A stretch of DNA of 64,000 nt from Peromyscus leucopus (lineage: Eukaryota; Chordata; Mammalia; Rodentia; Cricetidae): contig NC_051072.1 of NCBI RefSeq assembly GCF_004664715.2, positions 44,500,142-44,564,141 on the forward strand, read 5' to 3'. Position 1 is the stretch's first letter. Each line of letters begins with the position of its first letter. A model generated the notes under the pieces. It was not told the origin of the DNA. It searched no databases and saw only the letters and a program-made list of their open reading frames with translations. The position numbers and the translations under genes are program-made. Shown one piece after another: positions 17,111-64,000 of the stretch.

Positions 17111-17376
17111 CATCAGTAATTCATGTTGATAGCATGCTGAAATTACAATGCCTTGAGTAGCTTAGATTTTACAATTGAGATGACTTTCTCCCCCCCCCCG
17201 CGCCCGTTTTTAATTTTTTTTGGGGGGGTGTTGTAGTCAAAAGCATATTTTTTTAAACCTAATATATCTTTAACATTTTTTAAGCATTACCAGGACAGAG
17301 AAGGGTTAAGATGGAAAACTAATGACAAACTTGGCTTAGGAAGGAAGGGAGGATGATTTTGATTCAGAGAATGTAA

Positions 17377-17760
17377 GCAGTTAACTCCCCACCACCCCCA
17401 GGCTGAGCTCGTGATCTTTGTCGCCCAGTTCCTGTATGGCCAACCCATCACGCCCTGCTCCTCCATATCGAGCCTGCCCCCCAGAGGCCGCGTGCTTGCC
17501 CCCTCCAGATGGTGCTGCCATGCGCACCCCCACCCCTCGAGGGCTGCAGGGGCCAGGCATCCTGCCCCTGTCTCTGGCAGTCAACCTCGGCCACCCAGGC
17601 CAAGGATGTGGATGCATGGAGCCCTGCTCTCTGGGAACTCACCTCCGTGCTCAGGGAGGGGCCACTGGAAGCCCCAGTCTCATACCTTCCCAGGGGCCAG
17701 GGAGTGGCCCCCGCTGGTGAGCTTCCCCCACCCACCAGTGCTGCAGGTCTGATAGCAATA
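17377..17760. other. GC-rich unique segment, unidentified
   Basis: About 380 bp much richer in G+C and CpG than its AT-rich flanks, open in several overlapping frames on both strands (up to 113 codons at 17411-17752, plus). None of the translations looks like a known family to me. It could be a fragment of a retrocopied GC-rich mRNA, an exon, or a CpG island. Function unknown. Confidence 0.3.
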
Positions 17761-31350: not shown

Positions 31351-31905
31351 CCATTTGTGTGTCTTCTGAGAAATCTCTTTTCAGTTCCCTATCCCAATTA
31401 TTCATTATGTTGTTCTTAGTGTTTGTTATTTATTTATTTACTTATTTATTTATTTTTAGTTATTTGTATATTCTAGAAGCTTTTGCGAGCTTTGTTATAT
31501 TTTGTTTTGATTTCTAGGTTTTTAGTTTTTAATATATTTTGTTTGTTTGTTTGGAGTTTGGTTTGTTTTTCTCTAATTTTTTATTGCTTGGATTTTCTAA
31601 TTTTTTTCATTTCTGCATCCTTTCTATATTTCTTTGTATGTTTTTTCTTCTTAAGTAATTAGTGGTCTTTATTCTCAATGTTGCTGAGCTGGGGTCCTCC
31701 TTCCTAGTGACCTGCAAGTAGTTTTTTTAATTTGGATTTTCTTGGCTTTGTGTGTGGTTTTGGTTTTCTTGGTTTTTGTTGTAGTTGTTAGTTGTTTGAT
31801 AGAATTTTAGGTTTTCTATTCTTTTTTTTTTCCATTATTTTCATTTTCATTTCCAATTTCTTCTCTCTTTCTCCTTTTTATCTTTCTCTTAGGTAGCATT
31901 TATAT
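31347..31905. other. T-rich 5' flank of the kinase gene
   Basis: Strongly T-rich with TTTATT and TTTG runs. Just before the kinase start, a pyrimidine tract followed by TTTCTCTTAG (31883-31892) looks like a 3' splice site, so the coding exon may be joined to an upstream non-coding exon. No TATA or CpG island was identified. Confidence 0.4.
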
Positions 31906-31917
31906 TTGTTACCAATA

Positions 31918-33474
31918 ATGTTCTCCTGTTGTGAAAAGGAGTGTGCAGAACTTGTAGATAATTGTTCAGAGTTCGTGGAGGATTATGCAGGGCTCAGATC
32001 TAACTCCAGCCTCCTGGATCCAGAGAGCTTCTACTCGCAGTATGTGGTCTTGAAGACCATTGGCAGTGGAGCCTTTGCCAAAGTAAAACTGGCCCACCAC
32101 CGCCTCACAGGCACCCCGGTGGCTGTCAAAGTACTTCAGAAAAGGAAGATGTGGTGCTTTGCAGTCATGAATGAGGTAAATATTATGAAGCTGATGAACC
32201 ACCCCAACATCATCTCCCTTCTCCAAGTGATTGAGGCTGACAAGAGAACGTACCTCATCATGGAGCTGTTTGAGGGAAAAGAACTTTATAAGTACGTCCA
32301 AAAGGCTGGCCACCTGCAGGAGGACCATGCCCGGGGGATCTTCAGGCAAATCCTAAGTGCCGTGAGCTACTGCCATAAGCAGGGAATAATTCATCGGGAC
32401 CTGAAACCAGACAACATCATGGTGGATGGGAACGGAAAAGTCAAAATCATCGACTTTGGCCTTGGCACCCAACTCAAGCCTGGGCAAAATGTTGGATTTT
32501 TCATTGGGCCTTATGCCTTTTGTGCTCCGGAACTCTTACTTGAACTTTGTCATGGGCCCAAGGCCGACATATGGGCCTTGGGCGTGGTCCTATATTTCAT
32601 GGTGGTCGGAAAACTCCCATTTTGCGCTGTCATCTCGCCAGAGCTCAAAATGCAGATTGTGAAAGGGAATTATACCGTCCCCTTGGGCCTGTCAAAAGAA
32701 CTCCAGGACCTGCTCAGCCTCTTAATGAGAGTCAACCCCAAGCGTAGGCCAACAGCAGATGAAGTGATGACACACTCCTGGCTTAGGAAAGACACGGAGG
32801 CTTCACCGAATGACCGTGAAGAAATGGTCCCCAGCTTGCCCGACCCTGCAATTGTGGAAGCCATGGAACGGATTGGGTTCCAAGCCCAGGACATCAAAGA
32901 CTCATTATGTCACAGGAAATTCGACCAGACCATGGCATCCTATTGCTTACTGCAAAGGCAGGCTCTCCAGGGGCCGAGCTGCACAACCTCAGCTCAACCC
33001 GTGAACCCAGGGGTGGCGCCATTCCCTTCCCTAGAGGACCTTATTGCTTTCCCTCTACCACCCAGGAGGGGGAGCAGTGAGCCCACCCTTGGCACATTGC
33101 TCAGAGGATCACCCACTAGTGGTCAGGTGTCTGCCTATGGCCAGCAGACAGGTCAAAATGGAGACAGAAGGGCCACAGAGTACGCCATTCCTCTCCACAC
33201 GCCACTCCAGAGGACACTCACTTTGGACCAAGACCACCAACGCTCCAAGAGTGCCCCCTGCATTTACTCAAGGAGTACCAGCAGTGATAACATGGAAGAC
33301 AACTTCCGCCCCCACGGTGCCTCAGCAAAGGGCAAGTCCACCCGAAGCTGGGGCCAGCCTCGAGGCTTGAGGGCATGGACAAGGGGGATAGGAGACGCCA
33401 TGATGAGACTGTGCTGCTGTTGTCCATCAAGGAAATCTCACCAGGGGCAGAACAGAGTCTCCCCTCAGAAATGA
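31918..33474 (+). CDS. Sperm motility kinase (Smok family), intact single-exon gene
   Basis: 518-residue Ser/Thr kinase of the AMPK/MARK-like group, related to mouse Smok genes, which are expressed in the male germ line; the Smok-Tcr variant is the t-complex responder. ATG 31918 is chosen; the frame is open 12 bp further up only through a TTG. N-terminal extension 1-41 has several Cys. Kinase domain about 42-289: glycine loop GSGAFAKV 49-56, Lys71, Glu86, HRDLKPDN 159-166, DFG 179-181, APE 203-205. A UBA-like segment is at about 309-345 (DPAIVEAMERIGF). The tail to 518 is Ser/Arg-rich with CCCCC-type Cys near 493-497 and ends GQNRVSPQK, close to the mouse Smok end. No stop or frameshift; no intron within the CDS. 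Catalytic residues are all present. The activation-segment Thr that LKB1 phosphorylates in MARKs is not present (FFIGPYAFCAPE). Which Smok paralogue it is cannot be told here. Confidence 0.93.
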   Translation: MFSCCEKECAELVDNCSEFVEDYAGLRSNSSLLDPESFYSQYVVLKTIGSGAFAKVKLAHHRLTGTPVAVKVLQKRKMWCFAVMNEVNIMKLMNHPNIISLLQVIEADKRTYLIMELFEGKELYKYVQKAGHLQEDHARGIFRQILSAVSYCHKQGIIHRDLKPDNIMVDGNGKVKIIDFGLGTQLKPGQNVGFFIGPYAFCAPELLLELCHGPKADIWALGVVLYFMVVGKLPFCAVISPELKMQIVKGNYTVPLGLSKELQDLLSLLMRVNPKRRPTADEVMTHSWLRKDTEASPNDREEMVPSLPDPAIVEAMERIGFQAQDIKDSLCHRKFDQTMASYCLLQRQALQGPSCTTSAQPVNPGVAPFPSLEDLIAFPLPPRRGSSEPTLGTLLRGSPTSGQVSAYGQQTGQNGDRRATEYAIPLHTPLQRTLTLDQDHQRSKSAPCIYSRSTSSDNMEDNFRPHGASAKGKSTRSWGQPRGLRAWTRGIGDAMMRLCCCCPSRKSHQGQNRVSPQK

Positions 33475-35139: not shown

Positions 35140-35385
35140 GCAAACACCCCTGCTTAACCAGCCAAAATGCCTCTAGTTTCTGGTCCTCACGCCTTATATA
35201 TCTTTTTGCTTTCTACCACCACTCCCTGGGATTAAAGGCTGGCTTTCTGGGATTAAAGGCGTGTCACCATGCTTGGCTATGTCCAATGTGGCCTTGAACT
35301 CACAGAGATCCAGAGGGATTTCTACCTCTGGAATGCTAGGATTAAAGGTGTGAGTGCCACCATTTTCTAGCCTTTGTATCTAGTG
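35140..35385 (-). mobile_element. LTR fragment with B1-like units
   Basis: Reverse piece of the SINE-bearing LTR family: CTCCCTGGGATTAAAGGCTG, TGGGATTAAAGGCGTGTCAC, CTTGAACTCACAGAGATCC. It abuts and truncates the ERV RT remnant at about 35386. Confidence 0.6.
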
Positions 35386-36031
35386 GCTGTTGTACAAAAT
35401 ATTGGCACAGAGTTGGGCTATTCAACATTCCCTGTGGGAGGACCCTCCATTGAAATCTTTTAACCAGTTGAGAATTATTATAAGTAGGCACTGTAAAAGC
35501 AAATCTTTCTTTGTCTTTTTCTTGTAAGGGTATTGAAAAGAAACAGTCTTTTAAATCAATAACTATGAGAGGCCATCCTTTTGGTAACAGAGTAGGCAAA
35601 GGCATCCCAGATTGTAGAGAGCCCATTGGCTGAATTACTTTGTTAATTGCTCTAAGGTCTGTCACCATTCTCCATTTACCAGATTTCTTTTTAACAACAA
35701 AGACAGGAGAATTCCAGGGGCTACTTGATTCTTCAATATGCTGAGCATTTAACTGTTCTTCTACCAGCTCTTCTAAAGCCTGGAGTTTCTCTGTTGTTAA
35801 AGGTCATTGTTGGACCCATACAGGCTTGTCTGTTAACCATTTTAAAGGTAGAGCTATTGGTGTCTTTGGAAGATCATCAGTTATTGTGCCCTGTTCTTGT
35901 ATAATATGGATGGCTGGTGACCACTCATTAGAATAATATCTTCTAATATTTCTCTCAGTAACATGTGTTAGGTTATGATTTGTTTCTGAGATTGGAGGGA
36001 TGTTAATCTGAGTATCCCATTGTTGCAACAA
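35386..36031 (-). pseudogene. ERV reverse transcriptase, N-terminal remnant
   Basis: Recognised by the fingers/palm strings [22 protein letters not shown] and [15 protein letters not shown] stop lies near 35805, and the frame ends before the catalytic YxDD box because the element is cut at 35386. Non-functional. Confidence 0.85.
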
Positions 36032-36034
36032 GTC

Positions 36035-36400
36035 TCAATCCCACAGGTTCATAGTTATGTTAGCCACATATGGTTTTAATTTTCCTTTCTGTCCTTCTGG
36101 ACCTATACATTCGAGCCATCTTGCACTCTGTTTCACCTGAAATAACGTCCCAATTCCTAACAGTTGAACGTTTACCTCCTGAAGAGGCCAAGTTGGATGC
36201 CAAAATTCTGGTGCAATTATGGTAACGTCCGCACCTGTGTCTACCAGACCAGACAACAAAACACCATTTATTTTTATTGTTAATTTTGGTCTTTGTTCAT
36301 TAATAGAAGTTTGCCAAAAAATTTTCTTTATGTTTTCTCCTGAATTTTCTATTCTCTCTGTTTCATCAACCTGACCAGCATGATTTATTCCAATAGGCAT
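36035..36400 (-). pseudogene. ERV aspartic protease remnant
   Basis: Contains the active-site string LVDTGADVTII and GIGTLFQV / WLECIGPEG further on, as in class II retroviral proteases. The open frame is short and cut off from a working gag-pro frame. Confidence 0.85.
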
Positions 36401-36408
36401 TTGGTTAT

Positions 36409-37530
36409 TTAATCGCTCTCCAGAGCAGGGATTTCCTCTATGGCTGCAGGAAAGGTTTGAACTGGATTTGCACTGGGGGCCTGCGAGAGGCCCCTCTGGG
36501 AGTTTCCCGAAGACTGAGGCAAAGGATTACCCTGTCTGTCCTTTGTTGATCTACATTCGTTGGTCCAGTGTTTTCCCTTACCACACCTTCTGCATACTCC
36601 AGAAGGAAGGGGCATTCTGTTGCCATTGTTCCTTGAATAAACATTGCTTCTAGGAATGACCTGTTTACAGTCCCTTTTAAAATGTCCTTGCTTTCCACAT
36701 CCAAAACATCTAACACTCCTCAAACCTTTTGAAATTACTTCTCCTACCCACGTATCATCATGCTCATCAACCTCAACATTAATTGTTTCTCTAATCCAAT
36801 CTTCCATAGGTGCAGATCTTGCCCTTAATGGCCTGATTATTCTTTTGCATGCTGCATTCGCAATCTCAAAGGCCAAAGATTCAATTATTGCCTTACCAGC
36901 TTCTGAATCCGAGACCATTCTCTTTACTGCTGAAGCTAATCTTTGTAAAAAATCTGTAAAAGACTCTTTTGGGCCTTGCCTCACCTTTGTAAATGACTCA
37001 GATTTTTTTCCTGGTTCCTCAACTCTGTCCCATGCATTCAAGGCTGCCGTTCGACATAAAATTAGGGTTTGGACATCATATAAACATTGTGTTTGTGCTG
37101 AAGCATATTGGCCTTCGCCCATAAGCTGATCCTGGCAAACTTGTATTCCTTTATCCCTCCATTGTTTTTCTATGTTTTTAGCCTCCTCCTTAAACCAAGT
37201 CAGAAATTGAAGTCTCTGGCTGGGTTCCAGAACACCTTGTGCAAGGTCCCGCCAGTCCTATGGTACTATCCTATTATATGTTGACCAAGAGTTTAACATT
37301 TGCTTTACATATGGGGAATGCATGCCATAAGATACTATTGCCTCCTTAAACCTTTTTAAATCCAACATCTCAATTGGAGCCCAATTATTTTGTGTAGCCA
37401 TCATTTGATCAGGCATCTGCTGTACAGTTACAGGATAAATTAAGGGTGACTGTGTGAAAACAGGCTTTCTTTCTACAACCTTATGATCCAAACTTGAACC
37501 AACTTCACTGTTAATTGGATAAATTAAGGG
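36409..37530 (-). pseudogene. ERV gag remnant (capsid-nucleocapsid)
   Basis: Capsid part with the major homology region (RQGPKESFTDFLQRL), followed by two zinc knuckles CFGCGKQGHFKRDC and CRRCGKGKHWTNEC. The upstream part (37258-37530) is in a separate frame ending at a stop. The matrix region is absent, since gag sequence joins the LTR almost directly at about 37530. Confidence 0.88.
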
Positions 37531-37913
37531 TGGGATGGTCCATATGTCAAATTGCTCTGATTGGTCAATAAATAAAACACTGATTGGCCAGTGGCCAGGC
37601 AGGAAGTAGGTGGGACAAGGAGAGAGAAGAATTCTGGGAAGCGGAAGGCTGAGGCAGAGAGACACTGCAGCCACCGCCAGGACAAGCAGCATGTGATGAG
37701 CTGGTAAGCCACCAGCCACGTGGCAAGGTATAGATTTATAGAAATGGGTTAATTTAAGATAAAAGAACAGTTAGCAAGAAGCCTGCCACGGCCATACAGT
37801 TTGTATGCAATATAAGTCTCTGTGTTTACTTGGTTGGGTCTGAGCGGCTGTGGGACTGGCGGGTGACAAAGATTTGTCCTGACTGTGGGCCAGGCAGGAA
37901 AACTCTAGCTACA
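37531..37913 (-). mobile_element. Class II ERV 5' LTR
   Basis: About 383 bp, nearly the same as the solo LTR at 53800-54188 (shared CTCTGATTGGTCAATAAATA, CACTGCAGCC, GGCCATACAGTTTGTA). In element orientation it begins TGTAGCTAGAG. Its 3' terminal bases (CAGCA) are missing at the gag side. Confidence 0.9.
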
Positions 37914-37978
37914 CACCCCTCTCTAAACTGCCCTCTTACACTCCTTTAAATTCAGCTTCATGAGCTCTCAGGGAATAG

Positions 37979-43687: not shown

Positions 43688-43763
43688 GCCCGACTAGCTC
43701 AGTCGGTAGAGCATGAGACTCTTAATCTCAGGGTCGTGGGTTCGTGCCCCACGTTGGGCGCCA
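43688..43763 (+). tRNA. tRNA-Lys(CTT)-like sequence with CCA; likely primer-derived retrocopy
   Basis: A complete 73-nt cloverleaf, anticodon CTT at 43721-43723, discriminator G73 at 43760, and CCA at 43761-43763, which nuclear tRNA genes do not encode. Compared with the usual Lys(CTT) sequence from memory, only two positions differ: 6 (A) and 58 (T at 43745 in TTCGTGCC, instead of the near-invariant A). A58 also lies in the Pol III B box, so transcription would probably be poor. Directly 3' are 8 bases and then an LTR in reverse orientation, so on the minus strand this reads LTR, short spacer, TGGCGCCCAACGTGGGGC, which is the Lys primer-binding site, continued to the 5' base of the tRNA. An ordinary tRNA gene next to an LTR is the alternative, but CCA and position 58 argue against it. 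Confidence 0.85.
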
Positions 43764-43771
43764 GTTATCGA

Positions 43772-44184
43772 TGTAACCAACCGTCATATTAAATAAGAAA
43801 CACAGAAACAATGTAAAGGAGAAAGCCGAGAGGTCAGAGCTCAGAGCTAAAATCTCAACCTTCCGCCTGCGGTGTCCCAGCTTCCCGAAAGAGAGCTACT
43901 TCCTGTCTGTAAATCGATTTTCCAGTCATTCTGCCTTCTCATTGGTTGTAAACCCAAACACGTGACTGCCTCGTCACTGTCTGAATGTACAGCCCCCTAG
44001 GTCTTAAAGGCATATGTCTCCAATGCTGGCTGTATCCCTGAACACATAGAGATCTATGGGATTAAAGGTGTGTGCCACCACCGCCACACTCTTGCTATAG
44101 CTCTAATAGCTCTGACTCCCGGGCAACTTTATTTATTAACATACAATCAAAATCACATTTCAGTACAATTAGATTACCACCACA
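43772..44184 (-). mobile_element. Complete LTR joined to the tRNA-Lys sequence
   Basis: 413 bp. On the minus strand it begins TGTGGTGGTAATC, carries GTTAATAAATAAAGTTG, two B1-like boxes (GGTGTGTGCCACCACCG and a second near 44010 on the plus strand) and ends TTGGTTACA. Same family as 54282-54756 and 45406-45908. It is complete at both ends but followed only by the tRNA complement, with no retroviral interior. No matching 6-bp duplication is seen outside it (AGAGAA left of the tRNA, TAGTTT right of the LTR). Confidence 0.85.
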
Positions 44185-45405: not shown

Positions 45406-45908
45406 TGTGGTGATATTTTATTTGTTCTTTAACAAATAAAGCTTGCCTGGGGATCAGAGGAAAAAGCCAGCCACTATATTAAACACAGAAGTCAGGCAGT
45501 GGTAGCACAAACCTTTAATTCTAGCATTTGGAAGGCAGAGATTCATCCGCATCTCTGTGAGTTCAAGGCCACACTGGGAACAGAACCAGGTGTGGTGGCA
45601 CATGTCTTTAATCTTGGCACTAGTTAACCACAGAGGTCTGGAGGTCCATACAGACAAACAGGAGTGATAGAGCTGGGCAGAAAAAGGAAGTGATGTAGCT
45701 GGGCAGAGAGAGGAAGTAAGATGGCAGGTCACAGATAGGTATATAGGCATGAGTATACAGGAAGTAGCTCTCTCTTGGGCTGAGAATTTCCTAGTGGTAA
45801 GAACTTGTGGCTGTGGCTTGTTCTGTTTCTCTGATCTTTCAGCTTTCACCCCAATATCTGGCTCCAGGTTTTCTACTAATAAGACCATTCAGCAATTTGT
45901 GTTACACA
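45406..45908 (+). mobile_element. LTR with embedded B1-like units (SINE-bearing family)
   Basis: About 503 bp from TGTGGTGATATTTTA to GTTACACA, with AATAAAGCTTGCCTGGGGAT near the start, two B1-derived blocks (about 45490-45580 and 45585-45620), a GGAAGT-rich middle and a CTACTAATAAGACC end. TG...CA ends support an LTR. The open frame across it on the minus strand is not a gene. Confidence 0.7.
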
Positions 45909-53799: not shown

Positions 53800-54188
53800 T
53801 GCTGTGGGATGGTCTGTATGTCAAATTGCTCTGATTGGTCAATAAATAAAACACTGATTGGCCAGTGGCCAGGCAGGAAGTAGGTGGGACAAGGAGAGAG
53901 GAGAATTGTGGGAAGCAGAAGGCTGAGGCGGAGAGACACTGCAGCCGCCGCCATGACCAGCAGCATGTGAAGACGCCGGTAAGCCACCAGCTATGTGGCA
54001 AGGTATAGACTTATGGAAATGGATTAATTTAAGCTATAAGAAGAGTTAGCAAGAAGCCTGCCACGGCCATACAGTTTGTAAGCAATATAAGTCTCTGTGT
54101 TTACTTGGTTGGGTCTGAGCGGCTGTGGGACTGGCGGGTGACAAAGATTTGTCCTGACTGTGGGCAAGGCAGGAAAACTCTAGCTACA
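53800..54188 (-). mobile_element. Class II ERV solo LTR
   Basis: 389 bp, TG...CA ends, flanked by a perfect 6-bp duplication CCTTAT (53794-53799 and 54189-54194). The length of the duplication and the similarity to the 5' LTR at 37531-37913 place it in class II. It sits in the last Cenpk intron. Orientation follows the provirus. Confidence 0.95.
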
Positions 54189-54281
54189 CCTTATATGGAA
54201 TCTAGTTTTAGATAGAAGTATATGTATGTACATGTGTGTAAATATGAGTGGAGTGAAAGCAGAGCAGGGAGAACTAGATGG

Positions 54282-54756
54282 TGTGGTGATATTTTAATTG
54301 TGCTGAAATGTGATTTTATTTGTATGTTAATAAATAAAGTTTGCCTGGAGATCAGAGGTCACATAGTGAGGTCACATATCGAGCCATAGCAGAAGTCAGG
54401 CAGTGGTAGCCCATGCCTTTAATCCGATCACATGGCAGGCAGAGTCTCTGTGTGGTCAAGGACACAGCCAAGTATGATGACATGAGCCTTTAATCCTAGT
54501 ACCAACCATAGAGACCTAGAGGTCAGTGTAGATAGGCAGTGACGAGGAAGTCATGTGGCTGGGCTTAGAGCCAATGAGAAGGCAGAACAGAAAGGCAATA
54601 AAAGCGCAGGTCAGGCAGGAAGAAGCGATGGTGGGGAGGTGGTAAGATAAGGTAGTTGTGGCTCTTTGCTAGTTCTCTGATCTCTTTGGCTACTACTACC
54701 TTTGTATTTGGCTCTGTGTTTCTTATTTACTAAGACTGTTTAGAAATTCATTTACA
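54282..54756 (+). mobile_element. LTR with embedded B1-like units (SINE-bearing family)
   Basis: 475 bp from TGTGGTGATATTTTA to CATTTACA. 6-bp flanks AGATGG (54276-54281) and ATATGG (54757-54762), 5 of 6 identical. Contains AATAAATAAAGTTTGCCTGG, B1-like CATGCCTTTAATCC, and a second TTTAATCC block. Confidence 0.8.
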
Positions 54757-59010: not shown

Positions 59011-59329
59011 ATTAGAATGAAGGTATACATATGTGTTTTCTGTAACAGGAAGACAGTAAGAGAACTTAAAAAAATTCTTTTTCTCCCTGCATGCAGAGCA
59101 GAAATCAATGTGAAGAGAATGAGAAGGTGGCAACTCCCAGCCAGGAATAGACCTCATCAGGAACTAACCCTGACAGTACTTTTTTTTTTTTTTTTTTTTC
59201 AATAATTGAGTAAAACTGAAATTTATTATATGCCACAGTCGTCCTAGGGACCTCCATGCTATATATATAGCCTCTATGGTTCTATGGGTTGTGGACTGAT
59301 TGTTCTTTATTTTATATCTAGAATCCACC

Positions 59330-62300
59330 AATGAGTGAGTACATACCATAACTGTCTTTCTGGGTTTGGGTTACCTCACTCAGGATGATTTTTTCTAGTT
59401 CCATCCATTTGCCTGCAAATTTCATGCTTTCATTGTTTTTCTCTGCTGAGTAGTACTCCATTGTGTATATGTACCACATTTTTTTCATCCATTCTTCCGT
59501 TGATGGGCATCTAGGTTGTTTCCAAGTTCTGGCTATTACAAATAGTGCTGCTATGAACATAGCTGAGCATGTATCTTTATGATATAAATCAGCATTCCTT
59601 GGGTAGATGCCCAAGAGTGGGATGGCTGGGTCTTGAGGTAGTTCGATTCCTAATTTTCTGAGAAACCGCCATACTGATTTCCACAGTGGTTGTACAAGTT
59701 TACATTCCACCAACAGTGGAGGAGTGTTCCCTTTGCTCCACATCCTCTCCAACATTGGTTGCCATTGGTGTTTTTGATCGTAGCCATTCTAACAGGTGTA
59801 AGGTGGTATCTCAGAGTCGTTTTGATTTGCATTTCTCTGATGATTAAGGATGTTGAGCATTTCTTTAAATGTCTTTCAGCCATTTGTAGTTCTTGTTTTG
59901 TGAATTCTCTGTTTAGCTCTTTAGCCCATTTTTTAATTGGACTGTTCAGTGCTTTGATGTCTAGTTTCTTGAGTTCTTTATATATTGTGGAGATCAATCC
60001 TCTGTCAGATGTGGGGTTGGTGAAGATCTTTTCCCAATCTGTTGGCTGTCTTTTTGTCTTATTGACTGTGTCTTTTGCCCTGCAAAAGCTTCTCAGTTTC
60101 GAGAGGTCCCATTTATTAATGGTTGTGCTCAGGGTCTGTGCTGTCGGTGTTTTATTTAGGAAATGGTCTCCGGTGCCAATGCGTTCAAGAGTGCTTCCTA
60201 TTTTCTTTTCTATTAAGTTTAGTGTAACTGGATTTATGTTTAGGTCTTTGATCCACTTGGACTTGAGTTTTGTGCATGGTGACAGATATGGATCTATTTG
60301 TAATCTTTTACATATTGACATCCAGTTATGCCAGCACCATTTGTTGAAGATACTTTCTTTGTTCCATTGTATAGTTTTGGCTCCTTTGTCAAAAACCAGG
60401 TGTTCATACGTGCATGGATTAATGTCAGGGTCTTCAATTCGATTCCATTGGTCCGTATGTCGGTTTTTATACCAGTACCATGCTGTTTTTATTACTATAG
60501 CTCTATAGTAGAGTTTGAGGTCCGGGATGGTGATGCCTCCAAGGGTTGCTTTATCGTATAGGATTCTTTTAGCTATCCTGGGTCTTTTGTTTTTCCATAT
60601 AAAGTTGAGTATTTTTCTTTCCAAGTCTGTGAAGAATTGTGCTGGGATTTTGATGGGGATTGCATTGAATCTGTAGATTGCTTTTGATAAGACTGCCATT
60701 TTTACTATGTTAATCCTACCTATCCATGAGCATGGGAGATCCTTCCATTTTCTGATATCTTCTTCAATTTCTTTCTTTAGAGATTTAAAGTTCTTATCAA
60801 AAAGGTCTTTCACTTGTTTAGTTAGTGTTATCCCAAGGTATTTTATATTATTTGTGGCTATTGTAAAGGGTGATGTTTCTCTGACTTCTTTCTCAGCCCT
60901 TTTATCATTTGTGTATAGGAGGGCTACTGATTTTTTTGAGTTGATCTTGTATCCTGCCACTTTACTGAAGGAGTTTATCAGCTGTAGAAGTTCCCTGGTA
61001 GAGTTTTTGGGGTCACTTATGTATACTATCATATCATCTGCAAATAGTGAAAGTTTGACTTCTTCCTTGCCAATTTGTATCCCTTTGATCTCCTTTTGTT
61101 GTCTTATTGCTCTAGCTAGAACTTCTAGTACTATATTGAATAAATATGGGGAGAGTGGACAGCCTTGTCTTGTTCCTGAATTTAGTGGTATCACTTTGAG
61201 TTTCTCTCCATTTAATTTGATGTTTGCTGTTGGCTTGCTATAAATTGCTTTTTATTATGTTTAGAAATGTTCCTTGTATTCCTAATCTTTCTAAGACCTT
61301 TATCATGAAGGGGTGTTGGATTTTGTCAAAGGCTTTTTCAGCATCTAAGGAGATGATCATGTGGTTTTTTTCTTTCAGTTTGTTTATATGGTGTATTACA
61401 TTGACTGATTTCCGTATGTTGAACCATTCTTGCATCCCTGGGATGAATCCTACTTGGTCGTGATGGATGATTGTTTTGATGTATTCTTGGATTCGGTTTG
61501 CTAATATTTTGTTGAGTATTTTTGCATCAATGTTCATGAGAGAGATTGGTCTGTAGTTTTCTTTCTTTGTTGCATCTTTGTGTGGTTTGGGTATCAGGGT
61601 AATTGTAGCCTCATAAAAAGAGTTTGGTAGTGTTCCTTCTGTTTCTATTGTGTGGAACACTTTGAAGAGGATTGGTATTAGTTCTACTTTGAAAGTCTGG
61701 TAGAATTCTGCACTGAAACCATCTGGTCCTGGGCTTTTTTTGGTTGGGAGACTTTTGATGACTGTTTCTATTTCTTTAGGGGTTATTGGTCTATTTAAAT
61801 GGTTTATCTGGTCTTGATTTAATTTTGGTATGTGGTATTTATCCAGAAAATTGTCCATTTCTTCCTGGTTTTCCATTTTTGTGAAGTACAGATTTTTGAA
61901 GTATGATCTGATGATTCTCTGGATTTCCTCATTGTCTGTTGTTATGTCTCCCTTTTCATTTCTGATTTTGTGAATTTGGGTGCTCTCTCTTTGCCTTTTG
62001 GTTAATTTGGCTAGTGGTTTGTCTATCTTGTTGATTTTTTCAAAGAACCAACTCTTTGTTTCATTGATTTTTTGTATTGTTCTCTTGTTTTCTATTTCGT
62101 TGATTTCAGCCCTCAATTTGATTATTTCCTGGCGTCTGTTTCTCCTGGGTGAGTTTGTTTCTTTTTGTTCTAGAGCTTTCAGTTGTGCTGTTAATTCATT
62201 GATATGGGATTGCTCCATCTTCTTTATGTGTGCATTTAGAGCTATGAATTTTCCTCTTAGCACTGCTTTCATAGTGTCCCATAAGTTTGGGTATGTTGTA

Positions 62301-63130
62301 CCTTCATTTTCATTGAATTCTAGGAACTCTTTAATTTCTGTCTTTATTTCTTCCTTGACCCATTGATGTTTCAGGTGGGCATTATTCAGTTTCCATGAGT
62401 TTGTGGGTTTTCTATAATTTTTGTTGTTATTGAGTTCTAACGTTAAGGCATGGTGGTCTGATAAGATACAGGAGGTTATTCCAAATTTTTTGTATCTGTT
62501 GAGATTTGTTTTGTGTCCAAGCATGTGGTCAATTTTTGAGAAGGTTCCATGGGGTGCTGAGAAGAAGGTATATTCTTTTGTGTTAGGATGGAATATTCTG
62601 TAGATATCTATTAGGTCCATTTGAGTCATAACATCTGTTAGGTCCTTTATTTCTTTGTTAAGTTTCAGTCTGGTAGATCTATCTTTTGGTGAGAGTGGTG
62701 TGTTAAAATCTCCCACTACTAATGTGTGGGGTTTGATGTGCGTTTTAAACTTTAGTAGTGTTTCTTTTATGAATGTGGGCGCTTTTGTATTTGGAGCATA
62801 AATGTTTAGAATCGAGACTTCATCTTGGTGGATTTTTCCCATGATGAATATGTAATGTCCATCCTGGTCTCTTTTGATTGATTTTAGTTTGAAGTCTATT
62901 TTATTAGATATTAGGATAGCTACACCAGCTTGTTTCTTAGGTCCATTTGCTTGGAAAACCTTTTCCCAGCCCTTTACTCGGAGGTAGTGTCTGTCTTTGG
63001 AGTTAAGGTGTGTTTCTTGTATGCAGCATATGGATGGGTCCTGTTTTCTTATCCATTCTGTTAGCCTGTGTCTTTTTATAGGTGAGTTGAGACCATTGAT
63101 ATTGATGGATATTAATGACCAGTGATTGTT
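59330..63130 (-). pseudogene. L1 ORF2 (endonuclease, reverse transcriptase), two frameshifts
   Basis: Endonuclease part with [33 protein letters not shown] and [12 protein letters not shown] part with [24 protein letters not shown] and the catalytic [10 protein letters not shown]-terminal Cys region near [17 protein letters not shown] single-base shift in an A run near 61240 and another in a G run near 59750 break the frame; otherwise I see no stops. The usual start ATG region (about 63130) looks altered. Confidence 0.92.
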
Positions 63131-63189
63131 AATTCGTTATTTTTTTGGTTGTGTTGTGTTGTCCTTCTGTGGTGTATGTTGGTGTAGGA

Positions 63190-64000
63190 TTATCTATTGC
63201 TTGATTTTTCATGGATGTGTTTAACTTCTTTGGGTTGAATTTTCCCTTCTAGTGCTTTCTGTAGGGCTGGGTTTGTGGACAGGTATTGATTAAATCTGGT
63301 TTTATCCTGGAATATTTTGTTTACTCCGCCTATGGTGATTGAGAGTTTTGCTGGGCATAATAGTCTGGGTTGGCATCCGTGGTCTCTTAGTGTCTGCATG
63401 AGGTTTGTCCATGATCTTCTAGCTTTCATAGTCTCTATTGAGTAGTCTGGTGTTATTCTGATGGGTTTGCCTTTATATGTTACTTGGTCCTTTTCCTTTG
63501 CAGCTCTTAATATTTTTTCTTTATTCTGTGTGTTTAGTGTTTTGATTATTATGTGGCGAGGGGACTTTTTTTTGGATCCAGCCTATTCGGTGTTCTGTAA
63601 GCTTCTTGTATCTTCATAGGTATTTCTTTCTTTAGGTTAGGAAAGTTTTCTTCTATGATTTTGTTGAATATATTTTCTGTGCCTTTGAGTTGGTATTCTT
63701 CTCCTTCTTCTATCCCTATTATTCTTAGGTTTGGTCTTTTCATGGTGTCCCAAATTTCCTGGACGTTTTGTGTTAGGACTTTTTTGTCTTTATTGTTTTC
63801 TTTGACTGACGAATCTATTTTCTCTATCGTGTCTTCAGTGTCAGAGATTCTCTGTTCCATCTCTTGCAATCAGTTGGTTATGCTTGTTTCTGTAGTTCCT
63901 GTTCGTTTAGTCAGGATTTCTATTTCCAGCATTCCCTCAGCATGTGTTTTCTTTATTGTCTCAAATTCATTTTTCAGATCTTGGAATGTTTCTTTCATCT
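63190..64000 (-). pseudogene. L1 ORF1, C-terminal part
   Basis: RNA-binding ORF1 protein: coiled-coil end MQEMEQRISDTEDTIEKI, middle domain with NLRIIGIEEGEE, and C-terminal domain MKARRSWTNLMQTLRDHGC to FNQYLSTNPALQ. The two pieces (63549-63869 and 63190-63429) are in different frames, with a shift at the A run near 63567-63574. The N-terminus is off the window. Confidence 0.9.

What the first reader, a model, noticed from the sequence alone, without database searches (positions are those of the whole stretch)
43688..44184. LTR fused to a whole tRNA-Lys primer: an integrated, read-through strong-stop product
Seen: one complete LTR (TG to CA), 8 bases, then on the minus strand TGGCGCCCAACGTGGGGC (Lys primer-binding site) continuing into the complement of the entire tRNA-Lys(CTT) and stopping at tRNA base 1. 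CCA is present, although it is not gene-encoded. Position 58 is T where nuclear tRNAs have A. Known: in retroviral replication, plus-strand strong-stop DNA copies U3-R-U5 and then the tRNA primer, and stops after 18 bases because m1A58 blocks the enzyme; misincorporation opposite m1A is the usual read-through scar. Inference: here reverse transcriptase read through m1A58 to the end of the tRNA, and this dead-end DNA entered the genome. The element has exactly that extent and a mutation exactly at that base. I know of no standard annotation class for this.
Basis: partly seen in the sequence, partly recalled or inferred. Interest (0 to 1): 0.93.

Follow-up and report, generated by a model that had tools for sequence, protein, structure and literature searches.

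The report
Retroviral LTR fused to its tRNA primer
A single viral end-repeat in what looks like a rodent genome is joined base-for-base to a complete mature lysine tRNA, apparently a fossil of a reverse transcription that copied the viral primer to its very end instead of stopping after 18 bases.

Summary
On the minus strand a 413-base LTR (43772-44184) is followed by 8 bases, the 18-base Lys(CTT) primer-binding site, and the rest of the tRNA complement, ending at tRNA base 1. The tRNA part matches printed human tRNA-Lys(CTT) plus CCA at 74 of 76 positions, differing only at 6 (G to A) and 58 (A to T). Two other LTRs of the family in the window support its start and, less surely, its end; their flanks give imperfect 6-base target duplications, 5 of 6 and 4 of 6; the fused element has 0 of 6. 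The encoded CCA, the exact mature 5' end and the PBS register make copying of the tRNA primer by a retroviral reverse transcriptase the most economical explanation. Open: whether this was plus-strand strong-stop DNA, or a full-length cDNA whose 3' LTR kept its primer and later became a solo LTR; and whether T58 is an m1A58 scar, a U58 template or a later mutation. The host genome search did not complete (16 calls), so copy number, host Lys(CTT) genes and the empty site are untested. Full tRNA copying and capture of LTR intermediates at breaks are known; a genomic fossil of this form was not in the rows my paper searches listed.

The parts
43772..44184 (-). single LTR, TG...CA, 413 bases
   Evidence: aligned with two other LTRs of the family in the window, 79% (316 of 398) and 73% (280 of 386) over aligned bases in a global alignment; local blastn to the 54282 copy 68% over 308 columns, E 5e-30
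43764..43771 (-). 8-base spacer TCGATAAC between the LTR's CA and the PBS; could belong to U5
   Evidence: sequence
43746..43763 (-). 18-base primer-binding site, complement of the tRNA-Lys(CTT) 3' end with CCA
   Evidence: single match in the window with up to 3 mismatches; 0.01 expected
43688..43763 (+). complete mature tRNA-Lys(CTT) with CCA at 43761-43763; 74 of 76 positions as human Lys(CTT)+CCA
43745..43745 (+). tRNA position 58, T instead of A (site of m1A58)
43693..43693 (+). tRNA position 6, A instead of G
54282..54756 (+). comparison: solo LTR of the same family, flanks AGATGG/ATATGG (5 of 6)
45406..45906 (+). comparison: third LTR of the family, flanks CACACC/CACATT (4 of 6)

Best explanation
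It is a germline fossil of aberrant retroviral reverse transcription by a Lys(CTT)-primed endogenous retrovirus. Inferred course: minus-strand DNA started on tRNA-Lys(CTT); plus-strand synthesis from the polypurine tract copied U3-R-U5 and, instead of stopping after 18 tRNA bases at m1A58, ran to tRNA base 1. The over-long end no longer fits the minus-strand PBS, so second transfer fails. The LTR-tRNA duplex entered the chromosome, perhaps with its U3 end joined by integrase (it ends exactly at TG) and the tRNA end joined by host repair, hence no target duplication. Shown: anatomy, register, CCA, mature 5' end, no duplication. Inferred: the rest. The confidence given is for RT copying of the primer by whatever route; within it I give about 0.5 to the strong-stop route, 0.4 to the retained-primer/solo-LTR route (listed below as a rival), 0.1 to others. 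T58 as an m1A bypass scar: about 0.6.
For: 74 of 76 match to Lys(CTT)+CCA, ending at base 1. PBS in exact register, single occurrence in the window. LTR termini shared with two further copies. Flanks match 0 of 6 at the exact ends, against 5 of 6 and 4 of 6 at the two other LTRs; random pairs in the window reach 5 of 6 in 1.0% and 4 of 6 in 4.6%. Unmodified tRNA is copied to its 5' end, modified tRNA stops mainly at m1A58 (PMC13191261 section 10). m1A bypass leaves misincorporation; with G 3' of it, as base 59 here, C readings are low, so T or G is expected (PMC4787781 section 27). In wild-type yeast the Ty1 3' LTR is a hotspot of insertions at breaks and 40 of 56 such insertions carry nucleotides present only in cDNA (PMC10802722 section 7).
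Against: No second example, no empty site and no host Lys(CTT) gene set could be examined (genome search did not complete). Strong-stop DNA is paired to a longer minus strand (recalled), so freeing its U3 end needs an extra cut; the solo-LTR route avoids this. Position 6 also differs, so not all differences fall at a known RT block. With shifts a 4 of 6 flank match exists for the fused element too, so a decayed, offset duplication is not strictly excluded. Pattern scans of viral contigs for a PBS followed by more tRNA found 0, though I would not expect that collection to hold many rodent ERVs.
Confidence: 0.92

Rival explanations
1. Full-length linear cDNA kept the tRNA primer on its 3' LTR; the plus strand copied U5 and the whole tRNA; one end was integrated normally and the tRNA end by repair; LTR-LTR recombination later left a solo LTR plus tRNA. 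(A variant of the best explanation: RT copying is shared, only the route differs.)
For: Predicts the same anatomy and the same lack of duplication. Needs no freeing of strong-stop DNA. The two comparison LTRs in the window look like solo LTRs: no PBS match lies beside them.
Against: Needs two events, integration and recombination.
Confidence: 0.37
2. T58 came from the template: a tRNA-Lys variant with U58, which cannot carry m1A and so lets RT run through.
For: Unmodified tRNA is copied to its 5' end; an A58U tRNA-Lys3 inhibits HIV-1 replication kinetics.
Against: T58 breaks the B box motif (recalled), so such a gene should be poorly transcribed; the mouse Lys-CTT-3-1 fragment has A58. Host genes not seen.
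Confidence: 0.1
3. T58 and A6 are ordinary later mutations of the inserted copy; read-through left no scar.
For: 2 of 76 changes is modest; G to A at 6 is a transition, a common type.
Against: Chance that one of two random changes hits 58 is 0.027, and 0.004 if A to T (uniform model, post hoc).
Confidence: 0.3
4. Recombination of a provirus PBS with a tRNA-Lys gene or an L1-made tRNA pseudogene, or an LTR landing beside one.
For: L1-made tRNA pseudogenes exist (passages of PMC13174262, and PMC4476161).
Against: Nuclear genes lack CCA (recalled); the 18-base PBS is shared in exact register, not duplicated; no duplication at the ends. tRNA/L1 chimeras are typically half-length, with 9-19 bp duplications in all eight cases that paper sampled.
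Confidence: 0.03
5. A multi-copy LTR-tRNA element with a Pol III promoter, comparable to Helenus.
For: A box motif present by sequence (consensus recalled); the tRNA part folds as a cloverleaf; Helenus carries tRNA sequence in its LTRs.
Against: tRNA lies outside the LTR, no second LTR joined to it, B box altered at 58, no other copy in the window.
Confidence: 0.05

Closest known systems
Over-extended plus-strand strong-stop DNA (product P1, PMC13191261 section 10, read)
   Same: U3-R-U5 followed by a copy of the whole tRNA
   Different: Reported there with in vitro transcribed tRNA and, as extension beyond A58, in TRMT6-mutant cells; no chromosomal insertion is described in that section
Ty1 cDNA captured at double-strand breaks in yeast (PMC10802722 section 7, read)
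   Same: 3' LTR fragments with cDNA-only nucleotides inserted at breaks
   Different: Yeast, assayed at a broken locus; a complete tRNA is not stated in the section read
Solo LTR
   Same: One LTR, no internal genes
   Different: No target duplication; carries PBS and a full tRNA
tRNA/LINE-1 chimeras (PMC13174262, passages)
   Same: tRNA joined to a retroelement in a mammal
   Different: Mostly half-length tRNAs, target duplications, L1 not LTR
Helenus TRIMs (PMC10886601, abstract and passages)
   Same: LTR retroelement with tRNA sequence
   Different: tRNA inside the LTRs, proposed to come from SINE insertion; 4 or 5 bp duplications
snRNA pseudogenes beside LTR elements (Giles 2004, known to me only as cited in a PMC4476161 passage)
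   Same: Small RNA apparently copied along with an LTR element
   Different: snRNA, not the primer tRNA in PBS register

Membership tests
Plus-strand strong-stop read-through product | U3-R-U5 then PBS then tRNA to base 1 | tested here: met
   (U3/R/U5 borders themselves not mapped)
Plus-strand strong-stop read-through product | CCA present | tested here: met
   43761-43763
Plus-strand strong-stop read-through product | Never was a full provirus | not testable with these tools
   needs relatives or polymorphic alleles
Plus-strand strong-stop read-through product | m1A58 bypass error in the copy | tested here: inconclusive
   T at 58, but later mutation or a U58 template is not excluded
Solo LTR by ordinary integration | 6-base target duplication | tested here: not met
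   0 of 6 at the exact ends; best 4 of 6 with shifts of 0-7
Solo LTR by ordinary integration | PBS absent | tested here: not met
   PBS present
Nuclear tRNA-Lys gene | CCA not encoded | tested here: not met
   CCA encoded, joined to the LTR leader
L1-made tRNA pseudogene | Target duplication at the ends | tested here: not met
   lengths 4-15 with at most one mismatch and shifts 0-7 gave at best 4 of 5
Helenus (TRIM with tRNA in LTR) | Two LTRs with tRNA inside them | tested here: not met
   one LTR, tRNA outside

The most novel reading that the evidence does not exclude
Such LTR-primer fusions are a recurrent, unannotated class: each records one bypass of m1A58 by an extinct retroviral RT in germ cells, so a genome-wide set would give an in vivo error spectrum of that bypass and of primer methylation in the germline; a few may have become Pol III-driven mobile units.
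Probability: 0.3. Interest if true: 0.85.

Novelty: new variant of a known kind. Interest (0 to 1): 0.66.

Why it matters
The 18-base stop at m1A58 is a textbook step of retroviral replication, known from in vitro and cell-culture work. A chromosomal copy that overshot it would be natural evidence of how the stop fails and what the enzyme writes at m1A. It could also explain orphan tRNA calls with encoded CCA beside LTRs, and would show that defective reverse-transcription products enter the mammalian germline.

Tried and rejected
A scan of viral contigs for LTR end + 8 bases + PBS start gave 71 stretches; none of the 71 matches the element by blastn at E 0.01, so I take them as chance matches. 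PBS plus further tRNA in viral contigs: 0. LTR motifs in viral contigs and genome contigs: 0 and 0. Phage records: 29 matched; the 5 rows seen match only the tRNA end of the query. Rejected: LTR inserted beside a tRNA gene, L1 chimera, Helenus (reasons above). I hoped the flanks were one repeat that would show the empty site; the left and right flank match different places in the window, so no empty site could be inferred. Papers seen in passages but bearing little on the case: PMC10089650 (deer mouse ERVs, no PBS or tRNA text), PMC7472051 (states that PBS mutations in its ERVs do not fall at known tRNA modifications), PMC12478370, PMC11417395, PMC4751563 (its abstract finds no sign of NHEJ in Ty circle junctions), PMC7670042 (rat Lys-CTT fragment with G6).

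Full report
What is there. The window is repeat-rich mammalian DNA; from its B1-like repeats, L1 and class II ERV pieces I judge it rodent, probably cricetid (recalled knowledge; no call names the host). Reading 43688-44184 on the minus strand: LTR TGTGGTGG...GGTTACA (413 bases, 44184 down to 43772), TCGATAAC (43771-43764), PBS TGGCGCCCAACGTGGGGC (43763-43746), then the complement of the remaining tRNA to base 1 at 43688. ARAGORN and Rfam call the tRNA independently. Its RNA folds as a cloverleaf, -30.9 kcal/mol, z -2.51, with 3 of 200 shuffles folding at least as well.

Comparison with host tRNA. I took human tRNA-Lys(CTT) from PMC8216282 (passage) and added CCA: 74 of 76 positions agree; 6 and 58 differ. 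Mouse Lys-CTT-3-1 fragments in PMC7555719 (passages) start GCCCGGC and end TCGAGCCCCACGTTGGGCGCCA, so G6, A58 and the CCA of the mature RNA hold in mouse too. A search of held papers for five tRNA strings found 13 papers, all listed; none holds the T58 string or the A6 string. This is human and mouse evidence; the host's own genes were not seen.

The LTR family. Two other LTRs lie in the window: 54282-54756 with flanks AGATGG/ATATGG, and 45406-45906 with CACACC/CACATT. Identity over aligned bases in global alignments is 79% (316 of 398) and 73% (280 of 386) with the fused LTR, and 76% (334 of 437) between the two; local blastn is lower, 68% over 308 columns to the first and 70% over 105 to the second. 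All three start TGTGGTG and end TTACA. No PBS match lies beside either comparison LTR. Flank matches of 5 of 6 and 4 of 6 are met by 1.0% and 4.6% of random pairs in the window, so the second alone is weak evidence of a duplication. The fused element has 0 of 6 at its exact ends and at best 4 of 6 with shifts of 0-7; longer or shorter duplications (4-15 bases, at most one mismatch) gave at best 4 of 5. One doubt: from a shared GAC motif to the LTR end is 14 bases here against 23 and 24, so the 8-base spacer may be part of U5 with a changed end. Either way the usual two-base gap between CA and PBS (recalled) is absent here.

Why primer copying. The CCA, the start at mature base 1 and the PBS register must all be coincidences under any gene-insertion or pseudogene account; they follow at once if reverse transcriptase copied U5 and went on into the tRNA still attached to the minus strand. 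PMC13191261 section 10 (read) says that modified tRNA-Lys3 stops plus-strand synthesis mainly at m1A58, that in vitro transcribed tRNA is fully copied, and that TRMT6-TRMT61A mutation lets synthesis extend beyond A58. It also says that fully copied products cannot serve for the next step, which fits a dead end.

Two routes. I find a second route about as able to give this end: a finished linear cDNA whose 3' LTR still carried its primer, integrated with one ragged end, then LTR-LTR recombination. I know of no feature of the solo copy that separates them. Yeast data favour direct capture of intermediates: the Ty1 3' LTR is a hotspot at breaks, with 40 of 56 such insertions in wild-type cells bearing cDNA-only nucleotides (PMC10802722 section 7).

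Position 58. PMC4787781 section 27 (read) reports that m1A followed by G gives a cluster with low C, hence T or G readings; base 59 here is G, so T is an allowed outcome. That work did not use an ERV enzyme. The chance figures (0.027; 0.004) assume two uniform changes and a fixed transversion share, and were made after seeing the site. A U58 template and later mutation remain open.

In print. I looked at the listed rows (titles and starts of abstracts) of these searches of the held open-licence papers: 20 of 24 papers; 15 of 101; 20 of 362; 15 of 118; 12 of 21; 0 found; 8 of 8. No listed row describes an LTR joined to a full tRNA in a genome. Subscription journals are mostly not held, and papers on HIV and RSV circle junctions or aberrant integrations with tRNA inserts, which I recall, were not read. 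So the absence is of these rows and terms only.

Noticed in passing
43764-43771: Eight bases lie between the LTR's CA and the PBS, or U5 ends without CA; in either case the usual gap is not there. If the family normally has this, its integrase-end processing would be unusual.
   Followed up: partly
31897-33474 (+): Uninterrupted kinase ORF, 525 residues stop to stop, best-scoring solved chains MARK2 and MARK1 (best E 1.8e-75); resembles sperm motility kinase retrogenes (recalled).
   Followed up: partly
35342-37770 (-): Broken ERV pieces with gag p24, zinc knuckles, retroviral protease and RT domains in separate ORFs.
   Followed up: no
37530-37914 and 53804-54189: Two copies, 94% identical, of another LTR-like repeat; the first lies right beside the ERV gag pieces.
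   Followed up: no
17340-17732 (-): Weak match to nuclear RNase P RNA (31.8 bits, gathering 28), full model length; perhaps a decayed copy or chance.
   Followed up: no
59318-63582 (-): L1-like sequence with two long open stretches of 632 and 533 residues (61238-63136, 59650-61251), suggesting a fairly young copy.
   Followed up: no
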